From Novipirellula herctigrandis (lineage in GTDB: Bacteria; Planctomycetota; Planctomycetia; Pirellulales; Pirellulaceae), in the NCBI GenBank assembly GCA_007859835.1, contig SJPJ01000001.1, positions 5,935,526-5,979,315 of the forward strand: a stretch of DNA of 43,790 bases, read 5' to 3'. This document shows positions 22,884 through 43,790 of the stretch, piece after piece. The first letter of the stretch is position 1. Each line of letters begins with the position of its first letter. The notes beneath the pieces are model-generated. The model had not been told where the DNA came from. It saw nothing but the letters and a program-made list of their open reading frames with translations, and did not search any database. The translations under genes were made by a program, and so were the position numbers.

Positions 22884-22892
22884 CACAATCGA

Positions 22893-22931
22893 GGACTATG
22901 GGGCTAGGACTATGGGGGCTAGGACTATGGG
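22893..22931. repeat. tandem repeat, 2.7 x 14-15 bp
   Basis: The unit ggactatgggg(g)cta occurs at 22893, 22907 and partly at 22922, differing by one G. It is about 10 bases upstream of the ilvN start codon, so it lies in its 5' leader or promoter. Confidence 0.85.
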
Positions 22932-23032: not shown

Positions 23033-23065
23033 CCGCTGAAAAGCCGCTGAAAAGCCGCTGTAAAG
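23033..23065. repeat. tandem repeat, 3 x 11 bp
   Basis: ccgctgaaaag is repeated at 23033, 23044 and, with one change, 23055. Confidence 0.85.
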
Positions 23066-23311
23066 CGCCCGTTTTCAGCCTGTTTTTCTGGCAGTTGACT
23101 TCTCCTCCGACCGCTTTGACCACGTTATCGTCGTTCTATTTGGGATAATCGCTATCGAACCGACACCGATTGAGACGCATTGGTTCTGGCCAGAAGTGTT
23201 CATTTGATAAGCCTTTTTTGGCGAGCTAGGTTCACTGGACGCCGGTATTCATCTGCAAACGCCGTCGAACATCCTTTGCTACTTTTCACACCACTAACGG
23301 CCTAATCCCAA

Positions 23312-24652
23312 ATGCACGACCTTATCGAGCGGATCGAATCGAATGTCCGCGGTTATGCCCGGCTTTTCCCCGCCATTTTTGATACGGCGGTTGGATCGAC
23401 GCTCTCGGATACCAAGGGACGGTCCTACATTGATTTCTTTTGCGGCGCAGGATCACTCAATTACGGCCACAATAACCGCTACGCAAAAGCGGCTTTGATA
23501 GATTACATCCACCGCGATGGTGTGCAACATTCACTTGATACGGTGACTGCGGCCAAAGTTGCGTTTCTTGAGGCATTCGATCAGTTGATTCTTCGACCTC
23601 GGGGTCTCGATTATCGCATCCAATTCACAGGTCCGACGGGAACGAACGCCGTTGAAGCCGCGATCAAGTTGGCGCGTAAGCAGACGAAGCGATCGCACGT
23701 CGTTGCGTTTACTAACGCCTATCACGGTCACTCGCTCGGCTCTTTGTCTTTAACCGGGAACCAATACTTTCACTCCGAGTTCTACGGTTCACACAATAAC
23801 GTGACCCATTTACCTTTCGATGGCTATTTGGGTCCCCAAGATACGTCGCTCCAGCTCAAAAAGATGCTTGAAGACCGCAGCAGCGGATTACCGATGCCAG
23901 CGGCCGTCATTCTGGAAACCGTTCAAGGCGAAGGGGGTATCAACGTCGCAAGCGACTCGTGGCTGCGCCGAATCGCATCCCTATGTGAGCAGCACGATAT
24001 CCGGCTGATTGTTGATGACATCCAAGTGGGCAACGGCCGCACTGGAAGATTCTTTAGCTTCGAACAAGCTGGCATTAGGCCGGATTTCGTTTGTCTCTCC
24101 AAATCAATCGGTGGTGGCTTGCCGATGTCATTGGTCCTGATTCGTCCGGAGCTTGACAATTGGCAACCGGGTGAACACACCGGTACATTTCGAGGCAACA
24201 ACTTAGCGTTCGTCGCTGCGGCGGGCGTGTTAAAGCATTGGGAAGACGTTAGCTTCGAGAACCAGATCGCTTCGCGAGGCGAATTGGTCTTCCAGCGGTT
24301 GCGAGGAATCTGTGATCGGTACCGTGATGCTGATTTCCGACTCCGTGGACGTGGATTGATTTGGGGGCTCGATGTGCGAAGCGGTGATTTGTCAAGCAAG
24401 ATCATTCGTGGTGCATTTGACAAAGGACTGCTAATCGAATCATCGGGAAATCAGGATCAAGTGCTGAAAATCATGCCCGCTTTGACAATTGAATTGCCGC
24501 TGCTTGATGAAGGAATGGCGATTCTCGAAAAGGCTATCGACGATTGTATGGCCGAAGGCACTTCCGGTGTGGTCCAGCAAGTGTCTCCTGCGGTTGTCTT
24601 TCCCGATCTTTCCATGGCGTTAGGATCGTGTTCCATGGAAGGACAGAATTAG
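23312..24652 (+). CDS. EctB-type diaminobutyrate--2-oxoglutarate aminotransferase
   Basis: A PLP-dependent class III aminotransferase, 446 aa, close to EctB/PvdH length. These enzymes make L-2,4-diaminobutyrate from aspartate semialdehyde with glutamate as donor. The EctB-like signature is strong: FCGAGSLNYGHNN, QFTGPTGTNAVEAAIKLARK, TNAYHGHSLGSLSLTGN, LETVQGEGGINVAS, LIVDDIQVGNGRTGRFFSFE with the PLP-ring Asp, the PLP Lys264 in CLSKSIGGGLPMS, and GEHTGTFRGNNLAFVAAAG. Neither ectA nor ectC is nearby, so it does not belong to an ectoine operon. The next gene starts 3 bases after the stop and encodes an adenylation-carrier protein with a Dab-like pocket, so the product is probably used as its substrate. 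Confidence 0.9.
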   Translation: MHDLIERIESNVRGYARLFPAIFDTAVGSTLSDTKGRSYIDFFCGAGSLNYGHNNRYAKAALIDYIHRDGVQHSLDTVTAAKVAFLEAFDQLILRPRGLDYRIQFTGPTGTNAVEAAIKLARKQTKRSHVVAFTNAYHGHSLGSLSLTGNQYFHSEFYGSHNNVTHLPFDGYLGPQDTSLQLKKMLEDRSSGLPMPAAVILETVQGEGGINVASDSWLRRIASLCEQHDIRLIVDDIQVGNGRTGRFFSFEQAGIRPDFVCLSKSIGGGLPMSLVLIRPELDNWQPGEHTGTFRGNNLAFVAAAGVLKHWEDVSFENQIASRGELVFQRLRGICDRYRDADFRLRGRGLIWGLDVRSGDLSSKIIRGAFDKGLLIESSGNQDQVLKIMPALTIELPLLDEGMAILEKAIDDCMAEGTSGVVQQVSPAVVFPDLSMALGSCSMEGQN

Positions 24653-24655
24653 ACG

Positions 24656-27277
24656 ATGAATCCATCTGGTCTGACCGAGACGTCGGAAGCTCTCATTAGT
24701 ATGCCAGAGCTTTGTTCACAACAACGACGTCGCACACCCAAGAACATTGCGATCCATTCGGAAGATGGCACGTGGACTTACGGCGAACTTGACGAAGCAG
24801 CGAATCGTTTTGCGGCCAAGTTGCATACGGCTGGCACTTGCCATGGATCCCATGTTGGTCTTTGTGTCGATCGGTCCGCCGAAGCGATCGCGGCGATGCT
24901 TGGCATTATGAAAACCGGAGCCGCGTTTGTTCCACTGGACCCTGAATATCCAGTCGATCGACTTGGCTATATGGTCGAGGATGCAACGATTCGTGTTGTC
25001 ATCGGACACTCGCACTATCGCCACTTGTTTGAAGGAAACGACGTCATTTGGCTCGATTGCGAAACGCATTTAGAATCGGCACCAACCGAATTCGCCACCG
25101 CTGAAATCGCTCCTAGTGATCTCGCCTATATTATGTATACATCCGGTTCTACCGGTAAACCCAAAGGGGTACAGATTCAACACTCGGCGTTCGCTGCCTA
25201 TTGTTTCGCCGACATCGAGTGTTACGAGCTGACCGAAGACGACCGCACTCTTCAATTCTCGACGCTTTGCTTTGACATTGCGATCGAAGAGATTTTCCCA
25301 CCGCTGTTGACCGGTGGGGCCGTCGTCATTCGACCACGCGATCGAGCCAACGACAGCAACGAATTGTCATCGATCATTCGTCGTTTCGGCGTCACTGCGG
25401 TTCACTTAGCGACCGCCTATTGGCATTCGTGGGTTGACTTGATGGTCGCTTCCGATGATCCGATTCCAGAGTCAATTCGTTTGATGATTGCGACAGGCGA
25501 AAAGGTTTCCGTGGAGCACTATCGGCGATGGCAGAAGTTGTGCCAACAAGAGGTCCTTTGGTGCAACGCCTATGGCCCAACGGAAACCACCGTTACGGCG
25601 ACGGTGTTCATTCCCGATCATACCTTTGATGCACCCAATATGCCGATTGGTAAACCACTACGGCGATACACGGCGTACATTCTTGATGACAAGGGGAACT
25701 CCGTCGAACAGGGCGAAACCGGACATCTTTTCATTGGCGGGCCTGCGTTAGCACTTGGCTATCTGAATCGCCCGGAGTTAACCGAGGCTGCCTTCGTCGA
25801 GATGTCGATCGATGGAAAAAGTATGCGTCTCTATCGCACGGGGGACCTCGCTCGTTGGCTTCCAGACGGCAATATTGATTTCGCCGGCCGCGTCGATCAC
25901 CAAATTAAACTTGGGTCGTACCGAATTGAACCGGGCGAAATTGAGGCGATCCTTGACCAAGCACCTTGTGTACAGAGTTCGTTAGTCACCTTTGATGAAG
26001 TCGATAATAAGAAATTTTTGGTCGCCTATGTTGCTCGTGGTCAACAAACCATAACCGCCAAAGAGCTTAGCGAATTTCTGCGTGGATCTCTGCCGAACTA
26101 CATGATTCCGACACGGTATGTTTTTCTGGAATCGTTCCCGAAAACGATCAATGGCAAAATCGATCGCAAGGCGTTACCCGCGGCAAGTGAAGGCTTGGCT
26201 GCGACTGACGACAACTACGTGCCGGCGCGAAACGATCTGGAACGACGGTTGGTCGAACTGTGGCAAATCGTATTGAACGTACCCGAGATTGGCGTTCACG
26301 ACGACTTTTTTCTGCTCGGCGGCAGTTCGTTGCTAGTCACCCAGGTCGTTGCGCGACTCACAGCCGAAATGGATATTGAGTTGCCCGTTCGTGATTTCTT
26401 TGCCAATCCAACCATTGCAACCTTGGCGACACATTTGCAGCGATTACTGGGGCAAGCTACCCCTTCGACGTACGACGCCGATGTTCGTGCCTTACGAGAT
26501 CGGTTGCCATTGGTCGAAGCTAGTTTCTTCCCAAGTGACGGCCACAACCTATATGCGATTCACTATCGACCTCGCCAAAATATTCGCAATCAAGCCGTCG
26601 TTATGTGTCACGCGGTCGGGCACGAATACACACGAGGGTATCGAAACCTGCAGCAACTTGCCGTTCATTTGTGCAGTCTTGGCTACGATGTATTGCGTTT
26701 CGATTACGCGGGAACCGGAAACTCCCAAGGCGACTGTGGCGATTTAACCGTCGAGTCGATCCGGCGAAACATCCTTGACGCGAAGTGTTTCATTGCCAAA
26801 CAATCCGAAACCGATCACGTCTCGGCAATAGGCCTCCGGCTCGGGGCAACGGTTTTGACAACCTTACCGGATTTGACGTTCGAGAAAACTGTTGCTTGGG
26901 ATCCTGTCTTCGATGGTAGCACGATGCTAGGAATGTTCGACCAATTCCACGACCAACAGTTGGCCGGGATGACACGTTTCAATGTCTCTCGCCGTGCCAG
27001 CGAGATTGATCAGAGCTACGGCCATCGAATGACGAGTGTAAAACGACAAAGTTTGTCGTCGCTACACATCGGTGATTTGTGCGAAGCTTGTTCGTTGGTT
27101 GTAACGGAAGGCTCGTTTGCGTCGTTCGAAGAAAGCCAATGGTTGGCTGAACAACGATCTGTCCGTCAAGTGTCGGATTCGATCTACTGGGATGACGAAC
27201 AATACACCGAAAGTGCGTTTTCGTCTCCGGAGAGTTTTGCTGCGATCGTTGCCCTGCTTTCGAAGGACTCGGTTTAA
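24656..27277 (+). CDS. NRPS-like protein: adenylation - carrier - alpha/beta hydrolase domain
   Basis: 873 aa. The adenylation domain (~15-510) shows TYGELDEAAN, MKTGAAFVPLDPEYP, YIMYTSGSTGKPKG, LCFDIAIEE, NAYGPTETT, LYRTGDLARWLPDG and the catalytic Lys501 in TINGKIDRK. D207 marks alpha-amino-acid activation. Pocket residues aligned by eye to PheA read D-I-E-H-I-T-A-V-T-K, close to the Dab code. The carrier domain (~525-600) has LLGGSSLL with Ser558 for phosphopantetheine. The C-terminal part (~615-873) is an alpha/beta hydrolase fold: VVMCHAVGHEYTRGY, LRFDYAGTGNSQGD, but the nucleophile elbow reads GLRLG, with Arg where Ser is usual. No condensation, thioesterase or reductase domain. It shares one base with the next gene (TAATG). 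Probably loads diaminobutyrate onto the carrier; what follows is unknown. Confidence 0.9.
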   Translation: MNPSGLTETSEALISMPELCSQQRRRTPKNIAIHSEDGTWTYGELDEAANRFAAKLHTAGTCHGSHVGLCVDRSAEAIAAMLGIMKTGAAFVPLDPEYPVDRLGYMVEDATIRVVIGHSHYRHLFEGNDVIWLDCETHLESAPTEFATAEIAPSDLAYIMYTSGSTGKPKGVQIQHSAFAAYCFADIECYELTEDDRTLQFSTLCFDIAIEEIFPPLLTGGAVVIRPRDRANDSNELSSIIRRFGVTAVHLATAYWHSWVDLMVASDDPIPESIRLMIATGEKVSVEHYRRWQKLCQQEVLWCNAYGPTETTVTATVFIPDHTFDAPNMPIGKPLRRYTAYILDDKGNSVEQGETGHLFIGGPALALGYLNRPELTEAAFVEMSIDGKSMRLYRTGDLARWLPDGNIDFAGRVDHQIKLGSYRIEPGEIEAILDQAPCVQSSLVTFDEVDNKKFLVAYVARGQQTITAKELSEFLRGSLPNYMIPTRYVFLESFPKTINGKIDRKALPAASEGLAATDDNYVPARNDLERRLVELWQIVLNVPEIGVHDDFFLLGGSSLLVTQVVARLTAEMDIELPVRDFFANPTIATLATHLQRLLGQATPSTYDADVRALRDRLPLVEASFFPSDGHNLYAIHYRPRQNIRNQAVVMCHAVGHEYTRGYRNLQQLAVHLCSLGYDVLRFDYAGTGNSQGDCGDLTVESIRRNILDAKCFIAKQSETDHVSAIGLRLGATVLTTLPDLTFEKTVAWDPVFDGSTMLGMFDQFHDQQLAGMTRFNVSRRASEIDQSYGHRMTSVKRQSLSSLHIGDLCEACSLVVTEGSFASFEESQWLAEQRSVRQVSDSIYWDDEQYTESAFSSPESFAAIVALLSKDSV

Positions 27278-28128
27278 TGGAACAAGCAATCGTCATGGGC
27301 CACTACGAGCACCTGCTCGGCATTTGGTCAGCCCCCGCGTCATGCAATGGAAACACAGCCGTGATCATGGTCACCGCCGGAATGTTGCATCACGCAGGAC
27401 CGTTTCGACTGCATGTCGATCTCGCACGCGGTCTCTCGGCCAAAGGCATTCCATCCCTCCGTTTTGATCTCTCCGGAATCGGAGAGAGTTTTGGTGTTGG
27501 CGTTGGCGGGCGATCGCTCGACCGAGCGGCAGACGAGATCGGACAAGCGATCGATTGGCTTGCTGCTCACCACGGCATCACCAACGTTATCTTGTTTGGA
27601 CTCTGCAGCGGTGCCGATGATGCGATTGCTGTCGCGATGAATGATCCTCGTATCGTTGGCGTCATCGCGATGGATGGATGTGGCTACCGAACGCCCAAGT
27701 ACTATTGGCATCGGTTCAAACAGCACTACCTTCCTCGCATGCTCAAACCAACGAAATGGCATAGCATGGTTCGTCGGCGATTCCATCGAAACCACACGCC
27801 AACGTCGTTAACGCCTGGGGACGATATCCGCGAATTCCCAACCCGCGATGTAGCCGAAAGCGAAATCGCTTCACTGATCGAACAAGGCACGTGGTTGCAT
27901 TTTGTCTACACAAGCGGCGTCGGTGATTACTACAACCACTCAGCACAATTCGCCGAAATGTTTCCTCGCTTGAAGGAATCATCGAGCGTTTCCACTCGCT
28001 TCTTCCCCGAGATGGATCATGTCGCATTTTTGTGTGAAGATCGAGAAACATTGGTCGATCATGTCACCAAGGAAATTGCGGCCAAGATCGTCCGGACTGA
28101 AGAACCGGTGGTGTTACAGCCAAGCTAG
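27277..28128 (+). CDS. alpha/beta hydrolase with Cys nucleophile elbow, operon partner of the NRPS-like protein
   Basis: 283 aa. Alpha/beta hydrolase fold: VIMVTAGMLHHAGPFRLHV, then LRFDLSGIGESFG, then the elbow ILFGLCSGADDA, where Cys110 stands in the nucleophile position (G-x-C-x-G), and a likely catalytic His248 in FFPEMDHVAFLCEDR. A Cys nucleophile recalls dienelactone hydrolases and the 'hydrolase 1' proteins accompanying exosortase-A loci. A helical, basic cap (YYWHRFKQHYLPRMLKP) is inserted after the elbow. The start ATG overlaps the stop of the preceding gene by one base, indicating translational coupling. It could act as a thioesterase or transferase that moves the carrier-bound amino acid; this is inference. 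Confidence 0.85.
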   Translation: MEQAIVMGHYEHLLGIWSAPASCNGNTAVIMVTAGMLHHAGPFRLHVDLARGLSAKGIPSLRFDLSGIGESFGVGVGGRSLDRAADEIGQAIDWLAAHHGITNVILFGLCSGADDAIAVAMNDPRIVGVIAMDGCGYRTPKYYWHRFKQHYLPRMLKPTKWHSMVRRRFHRNHTPTSLTPGDDIREFPTRDVAESEIASLIEQGTWLHFVYTSGVGDYYNHSAQFAEMFPRLKESSSVSTRFFPEMDHVAFLCEDRETLVDHVTKEIAAKIVRTEEPVVLQPS

Positions 28129-33150: not shown

Positions 33151-33223
33151 TGAGAGTGCAGGGACTCGAACCCTGGACCAACGGATTAAAAGTCCGTTGC
33201 TCTACCGACTGAGCTACACTCTC
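33151..33223 (-). tRNA. tRNA-Lys (anticodon TTT)
   Basis: A full cloverleaf can be read on the minus strand. The acceptor stem GAGAGTG (33223-33217) pairs with CACTCTC (33158-33152), with discriminator A at 33151. The D-arm is GCTCAGTCGGTAGAGC. The anticodon stem ACGGA/TCCGT carries loop CTTTTAA with TTT at 33190-33188. The T-loop is GGTTCGAGTCC. 73 nt; CCA is not encoded. Confidence 0.96.
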
Positions 33224-33343: not shown

Positions 33344-33432
33344 CGGAGCGGACAGGATTCGAACCTGCGGAACCAATTTCTCGGTTCACCGATTTAGCAA
33401 ACCGGCGCTTTCGACCACTCAGCCACCGCTCC
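33344..33432 (-). tRNA. tRNA-Ser (anticodon GCT)
   Basis: Read on the minus strand. The acceptor GGAGCGG (33432-33426) pairs with CCGCTCC (33351-33345), with discriminator G at 33344. The anticodon stem CCGGT/ATCGG carries loop TTGCTAA with anticodon GCT. The long variable arm typical of class II tRNA is present (GAACCGAGAAATTGGTTC), as is T-loop GGTTCGAATCC. 89 nt; CCA is not encoded. Confidence 0.96.
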
Positions 33433-43722: not shown

Positions 43723-43790
43723 GCCCGTTGTATTGCGGTGGCCCGTTGTATTGCGGTGGCCCGTTGTATTGCGGTGGCCCGTTGTATTGC
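43723..43790. repeat. tandem repeat, 18-bp unit, at least 3.8 copies (cut by window end)
   Basis: gcccgttgtattgcggtg is repeated perfectly at 43723, 43741 and 43759; a fourth copy starts at 43777 and is cut off. It begins 31 bases after the trpA stop. The array may be longer beyond the window. Confidence 0.93.

What the first reader, a model, noticed from the sequence alone, without database searches (positions are those of the whole stretch)
23312..28128. Compact diaminobutyrate-activating NRPS-like operon without condensation or release domains
Seen: an EctB-type aminotransferase (PLP Lys264, DDIQVGNGRTG), 3 bases later an adenylation-carrier-hydrolase protein, and with a 1-base overlap a second hydrolase. 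Known: EctB/PvdH enzymes make 2,4-diaminobutyrate; adenylation-carrier proteins load amino acids as thioesters. Inference: the operon makes and loads diaminobutyrate, then passes it on with the two hydrolases, perhaps to decorate a polysaccharide, lipid or small molecule. I know of no described pathway with exactly this gene set.
Basis: partly seen in the sequence, partly recalled or inferred. Interest (0 to 1): 0.82.

Follow-up and report, generated by a model that had tools for sequence, protein, structure and literature searches.

The report
Diaminobutyrate-loading operon with paired hydrolases
A three-gene cassette that recurs in one family of Planctomycetes bacteria looks built to make the unusual amino acid diaminobutyrate, load it onto a carrier arm and hand it to a matched pair of enzymes, one apparently dead and one with a reactive cysteine, for a product that is still unknown.

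Summary
23312-28128 encodes an EctB-family diaminobutyrate (Dab) transaminase, an adenylation-carrier-hydrolase protein and a second hydrolase. It is a conserved unit: 28 of 199 sampled Pirellulaceae genomes carry the long protein; of 27 relatives fetched, 27 have the second hydrolase behind it and the 26 with upstream DNA have the transaminase in front; in 4, genes 2 and 3 are fused. These transaminases form one clade apart from ectoine-type ones; none of the 28 genomes has a strong ectoine-synthase match. The adenylation pocket code DIEH[IVL]TAV[TS]K is nearly invariant and carries a glutamate that binds the side-chain amine in a solved relative. New here: the hydrolases are a matched pair, the first with Arg at the nucleophile position, the second with Cys and His. 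Such pairs recur outside the family beside NRPSs, an aminoacyl-carrier ligase or exopolysaccharide genes. Best reading: a cassette that makes, loads and transfers Dab to an unknown acceptor; Dab lactam is the main rival. Nothing was assayed, and no structure could be predicted (server busy).

The parts
23312..24652 (+). EctB-type L-2,4-diaminobutyrate transaminase (446 aa), PLP Lys264 at 24101-24103
   Evidence: (TIGR02407 618.9 bits, cut-off 552.2)
24656..27277 (+). adenylation-carrier-pseudohydrolase protein (873 aa)
24719..26158 (+). amino-acid adenylation domain; pocket code DIEHITAVTK, Glu211 at code position 3
   Evidence: (TIGR01733 417.3 bits, cut-off 317.4)
26243..26437 (+). carrier (PP-binding) domain, LGGSS with Ser558 as presumed phosphopantetheine site
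26489..27274 (+). alpha/beta-hydrolase domain of 'hydrolase 2' type (Hyd2); Arg728 at the nucleophile elbow (GLRLGA, codon 26837-26839), no invariant His: presumed pseudoenzyme
   Evidence: (TIGR03101 69.5 bits, below cut-off 202.75)
27277..28128 (+). alpha/beta hydrolase of 'hydrolase 1' type (Hyd1, 283 aa); Cys110 elbow (GLCSGADD, codon 27604-27606), Asp133, His248 (codon 28018-28020)
   Evidence: (TIGR03100 77.4 bits, below cut-off 168.45)

Best explanation
A stand-alone Dab-transfer cassette. EctB turns aspartate semialdehyde into Dab. The adenylation domain activates Dab with ATP and loads it as a thioester on the carrier domain. The fused Arg-elbow pseudohydrolase (Hyd2) holds the carrier and presents it to the separate Cys-elbow hydrolase (Hyd1). 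Hyd1 takes the aminoacyl group as a Cys thioester and passes it to an acceptor nucleophile outside the cassette, most likely a glycan or another common cell component. Shown by sequence: the genes, domains, residues and conservation. Inferred: Dab as substrate, division of labour in the pair, transfer rather than hydrolysis, the acceptor.
For: Gene identities and cut-offs. Conserved three-gene order in 27 relatives (26 with upstream DNA), with no other gene family in more than 7 of 28 loci. Genes 2 and 3 form one open frame in 4 of 27. EctBs of this kind make one clade, SH-aLRT 99, apart from the others; 22 of 24 EctB matches of the other kind but 0 of 28 of this kind have a strong EctC beside them. 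Strong EctC occurs in 27 of 199 genomes, in none of the 28 with the cassette, expected 3.8, p 0.012 without correction for relatedness. Pocket code constant apart from I/V/L and T/S; the Glu at code position 3 binds the side-chain amine in PosA (passages of PMC10522769). In G020 another EctB without linked EctC lies about 2 kb from an NRPS frame whose pocket reads DIEDISAV-K. A PPTase-type gene follows the cassette in 3 of 27 loci, two of them of one genus (one tested by Pfam, the others by BLAST cluster). Hyd1 Cys and His: 27 of 27 aligned family members plus L047 read by eye, and 24 of 24 outside. Hyd2 Arg: 28 of 28 in the family and 28 of 30 outside, the other two Gly (one misassigned Hyd1 removed). 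Control: 13 other Hydrolase_4 ORFs of the own genome gave 10 Ser, 1 Asp and 2 unread elbows, none Arg or Cys. Relatives of the pair lie beside aminoacyl-carrier machinery (five Azospirillum loci, close kin, with an amino acid--[acyl-carrier-protein] ligase, tested by NCBIfam in one; Variovorax NRPS, PPTase and polysaccharide genes; Planctomycetota NRPS frames or C-T) or beside exopolysaccharide genes (Cupriavidus, Burkholderia, Rhizobium).
Against: No acceptor gene is shared beside the Pirellulaceae cassettes, which fits a self-contained product at least as well. Both hydrolases score far below the exosortase-model cut-offs. Some outside pairs show no carrier gene nearby: Caballeronia L148 within 9 kb of annotation, and none among the few neighbours tested of L125, L127, L129, L136. 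Five of the 30 outside loci gave a Hyd2 but no Hyd1. Sorting into Hyd1 and Hyd2 used profiles built from the family, whose elbow residue counts a little in the score. Dab specificity rests on a code read from motif anchors plus the gene neighbour: PosA's paper lists Phe at code position 2 for poly-Dap/poly-Dab synthetases, here it is Ile, and His and Val of the code do not touch the substrate there; other Dab codes look different. G108 keeps the EctB without the long protein. One cassette genome, G065, has a weak match just over the Pfam cut-off for ectoine synthase (27.1 against 27 bits; strong ones 88-199). No structure model was obtained.
Confidence: 0.45

Rival explanations
1. The cassette is self-sufficient and makes a small cyclic product: Hyd1 (with Hyd2) releases Dab by attack of its own gamma-amine on the thioester, giving 3-aminopyrrolidin-2-one, perhaps a solute or signal comparable to ectoine.
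For: Only three genes are conserved together; cysteine thioesterases that close small lactam or lactone rings are known (SulM with Dap, ObiF; passages of PMC11298585 and PMC6668435); none of the 28 cassette genomes has a strong ectoine-synthase match.
Against: Relatives of the hydrolase pair lie in exopolysaccharide clusters; two hydrolase domains seem much for a reaction that a Dab thioester should undergo almost by itself (chemical reasoning, not tested).
Confidence: 0.2
2. The long protein and Hyd1 load and shuttle Dab to a carrier domain of another NRPS, as SyrC and CmaE do, for a peptide made elsewhere in the genome.
For: An A-T protein plus a separate aminoacyltransferase is the pattern of CmaA/CmaE (passage of PMC8748450; the alpha/beta-hydrolase fold and Cys of CmaE/SyrC are recalled); the own genome has another large NRPS frame; in Planctomycetota such pairs also lie beside NRPS or C-T frames (L126, L135, L138, L140).
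Against: The maps (about -6 to +8 kb, contig ends permitting) show no second ORF of the A-T cluster beside the cassette; whether all cassette genomes hold an NRPS lacking its own A domain was not tested.
Confidence: 0.15
3. Hyd1 is only an editing (type II) thioesterase that clears wrongly loaded carriers; the true product step is unknown.
For: Hyd1 is a small alpha/beta hydrolase with Cys-His-Asp candidates; type II thioesterases are such proteins (known families).
Against: Pairing with a nucleophile-less partner and one open frame with the A-T protein in 4 of 27 relatives suggest a main-path role.
Confidence: 0.1
4. The aminotransferase is simply a leftover or duplicated ectoine gene next to an unrelated NRPS-like gene.
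For: It passes the EctB equivalog cut-off.
Against: Linked in 26 of 26 relatives with upstream DNA; separate clade; EctC beside 0 of the 28.
Confidence: 0.03

Closest known systems
ectABC ectoine operon (EctB, TIGR02407)
   Same: Same Dab transaminase family, score over the cut-off.
   Different: EctC beside 0 of 28, against 22 of 24 for the other EctBs; separate clade. A 2026 survey of Planctomycetota ectoine genes (PMC13342039; abstract, outline and passages seen) searched by EctC; the passages seen do not mention such EctBs.
Exosortase A-associated hydrolases 2 and 1 (TIGR03101, TIGR03100) with ligase TIGR03098
   Same: Best NCBIfam model of each hydrolase, in 2-then-1 order here and in the six other pairs tested whole; a Planctomycetota locus (L131) joins a carrier, a TIGR03098-like ligase (448 against 592 bits) and a fused pair.
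   Different: Scores below the curated cut-offs; here the pair follows an amino-acid A-T protein and a transaminase; exosortase linkage and the elbows of true exosortase-locus proteins were not tested.
SyrB1/SyrC and CmaA/CmaE aminoacyl shuttles
   Same: A-T protein plus a separate aminoacyltransferase (CmaE described in a passage of PMC8748450; fold and Cys recalled).
   Different: No Arg-elbow partner described there as far as I recall; sequence relation not tested.
Cysteine thioesterases ObiF and SulM
   Same: Catalytic Cys in a thioesterase acting on carrier-bound substrate; GxCxG in ObiF (passages).
   Different: Here the domain fused behind the carrier is the nucleophile-less one, and the Cys enzyme is a separate protein in 24 of 28 loci.
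Amino acid--[acyl-carrier-protein] ligase operons (NF005479) of Azospirillum
   Same: Carrier-bound amino acid machinery in an operon-like row with a fused Hyd2-Hyd1 protein.
   Different: Activation by a ligase with weak serine--tRNA ligase similarity, plus DUF1839, an acyl-CoA dehydrogenase-like and a GH2 protein.
Cationic homopoly(amino acid) synthetases (PosA and relatives)
   Same: Pocket code shares D, E, H, V and a hydroxyl residue (passages of PMC10522769).
   Different: Code positions 2 and 5 differ; no condensation family in the Pfam scan.

Membership tests
EctB (TIGR02407) | score over curated equivalog cut-off, PLP lysine | tested here: met
   618.9 against 552.2 bits; Lys264 invariant in 27 aligned
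ectABC ectoine pathway | linked EctC, ectoine synthase in the genome | tested here: not met
   EctC beside 0 of 28 EctBs of this kind; no strong EctC in the 28 cassette genomes; G065 has one match at 27.1 bits, cut-off 27
NRPS-type adenylation-carrier protein (TIGR01733 + PF00550) | domain scores over cut-offs, carrier serine | tested here: met
   417.3 against 317.4; PP-binding 58.9 against 20.8; Ser557/Ser558 invariant
Diamino-acid-activating A domain | acidic pocket residue for the side-chain amine; measured substrate | tested here: inconclusive
   Glu211 at code position 3 in 28 of 28, but also in 3 of 10 other A-type domains read; PosA precedent; no assay
Exosortase A hydrolase 2 (TIGR03101) | score over curated cut-off | tested here: not met
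   69.5 against 202.75 bits, but best model of the library
Exosortase A hydrolase 1 (TIGR03100) | score over curated cut-off | tested here: not met
   77.4 against 168.45 bits, but best model
Exosortase A system | exosortase and PEP-CTERM genes in the locus | not tested
   no exosortase search was run
Catalytic alpha/beta hydrolase (Hyd2) | Ser/Cys/Asp nucleophile and catalytic His | tested here: not met
   Arg at the elbow in 28 of 28, no invariant His in the Hyd2 part
Catalytic alpha/beta hydrolase (Hyd1) | nucleophile, His and acid | tested here: met
   Cys110, His248, Asp133 invariant in the 27 aligned and present in L047; that Asp133 is the acid is inferred, no structure
SyrC/CmaE aminoacyltransferases | sequence kinship and transfer between carriers | not tested
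   reference sequences were not compared

The most novel reading that the evidence does not exclude
The Arg-elbow pseudohydrolase and Cys-elbow hydrolase form one two-part machine, an unrecognised class of carrier-to-acceptor (amino)acyltransferase that serves NRPS lines, tRNA-synthetase-like ligases, acyl ligases and exopolysaccharide clusters alike; the Pirellulaceae cassette is its minimal free-standing form, dedicated to diaminobutyrate.
Probability: 0.35. Interest if true: 0.8.

Novelty: new variant of a known kind. Interest (0 to 1): 0.62.

Why it matters
If right, it gives a function to hydrolase pairs whose best NCBI models are hypothetical exosortase-associated proteins, links several ways of charging carrier proteins to one off-loading unit, and adds a use of diaminobutyrate in Planctomycetes besides ectoine. 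The smallest form is three proteins plus a PPTase, so the chemistry can be rebuilt in a tube.

Tried and rejected
Guess that the large neighbouring ORFs in nine loci (F4 in six, F23 in three) are efflux pumps: rejected for F4 and its companion F8, whose tested members are PSD1/PSCyt and DUF1501 proteins; the F23 member tested had no Pfam match. Guess that L047 is a fused gene or lacks the second hydrolase: rejected, it has an intact separate Hyd1; my first notebook entry wrongly lists it among the fusions. Idea that ectoine and cassette genomes exclude each other: only weak support (p 0.012, relatedness ignored); G017 holds both EctB types but no strong EctC. A code DLEHNTTVSK for diaminopropionate, recalled from memory, was not found in the library and is not used as evidence. 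Literature searches around the gene set and its parts showed no description of it in the listings and passages seen; they cover only the open library. The PEP-CTERM founding paper (PMC1569441) has none of the six terms I looked for, 'hydrolase' among them, in its held text. Promoter/terminator scan and Rfam gave nothing bearing on the cassette. Longest-ORF gene calls were wrong for the GC-rich plasmids, so annotated coordinates or codon-composition calls were used there; no gene caller was available.
Full report
Observation. Three genes lie head to tail on the + strand at 23312-24652, 24656-27277 and 27277-28128, with 3 bases between the first two and a 1-base overlap of the last two. Gene 1 passes the cut-off of the EctB equivalog model (TIGR02407, 618.9 against 552.2 bits). 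Gene 2 has AMP-binding, AMP-binding_C and PP-binding domains and a C-terminal alpha/beta-hydrolase domain (Hydrolase_4 at 23.3 bits, under its cut-off of 27); gene 3 is a second alpha/beta hydrolase (30.2 bits). By eye from the translations, ilvC/ilvN-like genes lie upstream and a cardiolipin-synthase-like gene downstream, all on the other strand, so the unit stands alone.

Conservation. Of 199 Pirellulaceae genomes sampled, 28 including the own one hold a long relative of gene 2 (49-66% identity; in G138 it is cut by a contig end); only up to four candidates per genome were scored, so this is a lower bound. I fetched the loci of all 27 others. All 27 have the gene-3 relative behind; 26 have the EctB in front (in L066 cut by the contig start), and the 27th (L067) starts inside gene 2. 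In 4 of 27 (L042, L043, L044, L066) genes 2 and 3 are one open frame. No further gene family is shared by more than 7 of 28 loci, and the flanks shared most widely belong to six loci of one genus. A PPTase-type gene follows in 3 of 27 (cluster F26, two of one genus; one tested by Pfam). In a class-wide sample of 397 genomes (two candidates scored each, E up to 1e-140), 6 had a long relative, all Pirellulaceae.

Not ectoine. In the same family sample 51 of 199 genomes have a strong EctB match, 52 places in all. Twenty-eight are of the cassette kind (59% identity and more, plus G127, cut by a contig end, at 55%); this includes the lone one of G108. The other 24 lie at 49-55%. Held against the ectoine-synthase places, 22 of these 24 have a strong EctC within about half a kilobase (not G020 and the second EctB of G017), and 0 of the 28 do. 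A tree of 43 rows (27 cassette, 15 of the 24 others, the lone one) puts the cassette EctBs and the lone one in one clade at 99, apart from the others, with one long-branch row, L119 (quick method, SH-aLRT only). Strong EctC matches (over 88 bits) occur in 27 of 199 genomes and in none of the 28 with the long protein. A further 20 genomes had only matches of 31 bits or less, among them the cassette genomes G017 (23.5) and G065 (27.1, just over the Pfam cut-off of 27). The chance of zero overlap is 0.012 if genomes were independent, which they are not. Pfam confirmed two EctC and two EctA-type neighbours of the other EctBs, the only four tested. G108 is an exception: cassette-type EctB without gene 2 or 3 on a 4.7-kb contig, and a diverged Hyd2/Hyd1 pair at the end of another contig. 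G037, of the window's genus, showed no EctB of this strength and neither hydrolase.

Substrate. The ten pocket positions were placed by motif anchors recalled from GrsA numbering, not by structure. They read DIEHITAVTK, and across 28 rows vary only I/V/L at position 5 and T/S at position 9; L067 shows the last eight only. Ten other A-type domains read in the same way gave other strings; three of them (in L036, L119, L140) also have Glu at position 3. L119 (DIEDISAV-K, one position unread) is telling: it is an NRPS frame in G020 about 2 kb from an EctB that also lacks a linked EctC. In the ornithine-activating PosA structure the position-3 Glu binds the side-chain amine, and that code shares D, E, H, V and a hydroxyl residue with ours; but His and Val do not touch the substrate there, and position 2, said to set chain length, is Met in PosA, Phe in poly-Dap/poly-Dab synthetases and Ile here (passages of PMC10522769). 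With EctB next door, Dab is the likeliest substrate; Orn is not excluded.

The hydrolase pair. Taken alone, the domain in gene 2 has TIGR03101 (exosortase A hydrolase 2) as best NCBIfam model and gene 3 has TIGR03100 (hydrolase 1), both below cut-off. The elbow of the first has Arg at the nucleophile position in 28 of 28 (G-x-R in 25, A-x-R in 3) and it has no invariant His; the elbow of the second is GLCSGADD with an invariant His and Asp133 in the 27 aligned, and L047 has all three. Searching the phylum with TIGR03101 gave 35 of 392 genomes, none over the cut-off; I fetched 20 of these loci, which with 10 plasmid records makes an outside set of 30 loci. All 30 gave a Hyd2 and 25 a Hyd1 (24 called, one misassigned to Hyd2); L124, L128, L129, L132 and L133 gave Hyd2 only. 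Of the 24 called Hyd1, 24 keep Cys and His. Of the 30 Hyd2, 28 have Arg and 2 (L133, L147) Gly; their GHE-type Glu is kept in 30 of 30. Hyd1/Hyd2 were told apart by profiles built from the cassette family, and five Azospirillum loci are close kin. The acid differs: Asp133 in the family against mostly Asn outside (17 of 24), where an Asp often sits in a later GD motif; a moved acid is discussed for ObiF and SulM (passages). As control, 13 other Hydrolase_4 ORFs of the own genome gave 10 Ser, 1 Asp and 2 unread elbows. Profile searches of PDB sequences place both domains among alpha/beta hydrolases (best E about 1e-28), with no close solved relative by sequence.

Where else the pair lives. Azospirillum: five loci looked at, each annotated with carrier protein, acyl-CoA dehydrogenase-like, amino acid--[acyl-carrier-protein] ligase, DUF1839, GH2 and a hydrolase gene of fused-pair length; in one, the ligase scores 522 against a cut-off of 357 and the fused pair matches both hydrolase models. 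Variovorax: NRPS, PPTase, Hyd2, Hyd1, then polysaccharide export genes. Cupriavidus, Burkholderia arboris and Rhizobium: polysaccharide-type genes close by. Caballeronia: nothing carrier-like annotated within 9 kb. These are 10 of the 35 distinct plasmid records hit. Planctomycetota: NRPS frames in L126 (with a PKS), L138 and L140, C-T-Hyd2 in L135, carrier plus TIGR03098-like ligase in L131, a glycosyltransferase nearest to PEP-CTERM-type models in L123; the few neighbours tested of L125, L127, L129 and L136 hold no carrier. The remaining loci were not looked at gene by gene.

Mechanism. What is shown is presence and conservation. The rest is inference: Dab made by EctB, activated and loaded, taken over by Cys110 of Hyd1 with Hyd2 as carrier- or acceptor-binding partner, and passed on. 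Precedents for enzymes that shuttle or cyclise carrier-bound amino acids are CmaE/SyrC, ObiF and SulM (passages). Glycan-linked relatives point to a glycan-type acceptor; the lack of a shared acceptor gene beside the cassette points to a common acceptor or to intramolecular lactam formation. I put 0.45 on transfer, 0.20 on lactam, 0.15 on a shuttle to another NRPS, 0.10 on editing only.

Novelty. Each part belongs to a known superfamily. The combination, the Arg/Cys pairing and its spread over several charging systems were not described in the listings and passages I saw (open library only). A survey of ectoine genes in the phylum (PMC13342039; abstract, outline, passages) did not treat these EctBs in the passages seen.

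Noticed in passing
L119:3-7383 (G020): Another EctB without linked EctC, about 2 kb from an NRPS frame whose A-domain code (DIEDISAV-K) resembles the cassette's: a second possible EctB-NRPS partnership.
   Followed up: partly
L131:7540-12332: Planctomycetota operon with carrier protein, TIGR03098-like ligase, an ATP-pyrophosphatase-like protein and a fused Hyd2-Hyd1: resembles the exosortase A ligase-hydrolase set.
   Followed up: partly
L139:7846-10749: 968-aa protein with about 370 N-terminal residues without Pfam match in front of a fused Hyd2-Hyd1.
   Followed up: no
L143, L149, L150, L151, L152: Azospirillum plasmid gene row: carrier, acyl-CoA dehydrogenase-like, aminoacyl-carrier ligase, DUF1839, GH2, hydrolase pair; product unknown to me.
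   Followed up: partly
G000:C1:4438281-4442690 (locus L004): Own genome: a 2098-aa frame holding both a class-III aminotransferase-like stretch and an adenylation domain.
   Followed up: no
window 22892-22931 and 23033-23066: Short tandem repeats in the intergenic stretch upstream of the cassette.
   Followed up: no
window 43723-43790: Perfect 18-base tandem repeat running to the window end.
   Followed up: no
window 33151-33223 and 33344-33432: Two tRNA matches on the minus strand.
   Followed up: no
L170:7477-9332: G108 has a free-standing Hyd2 (GLRLGA) and Hyd1 (GLCSGS) pair at a contig end, upstream gene cut off.
   Followed up: partly
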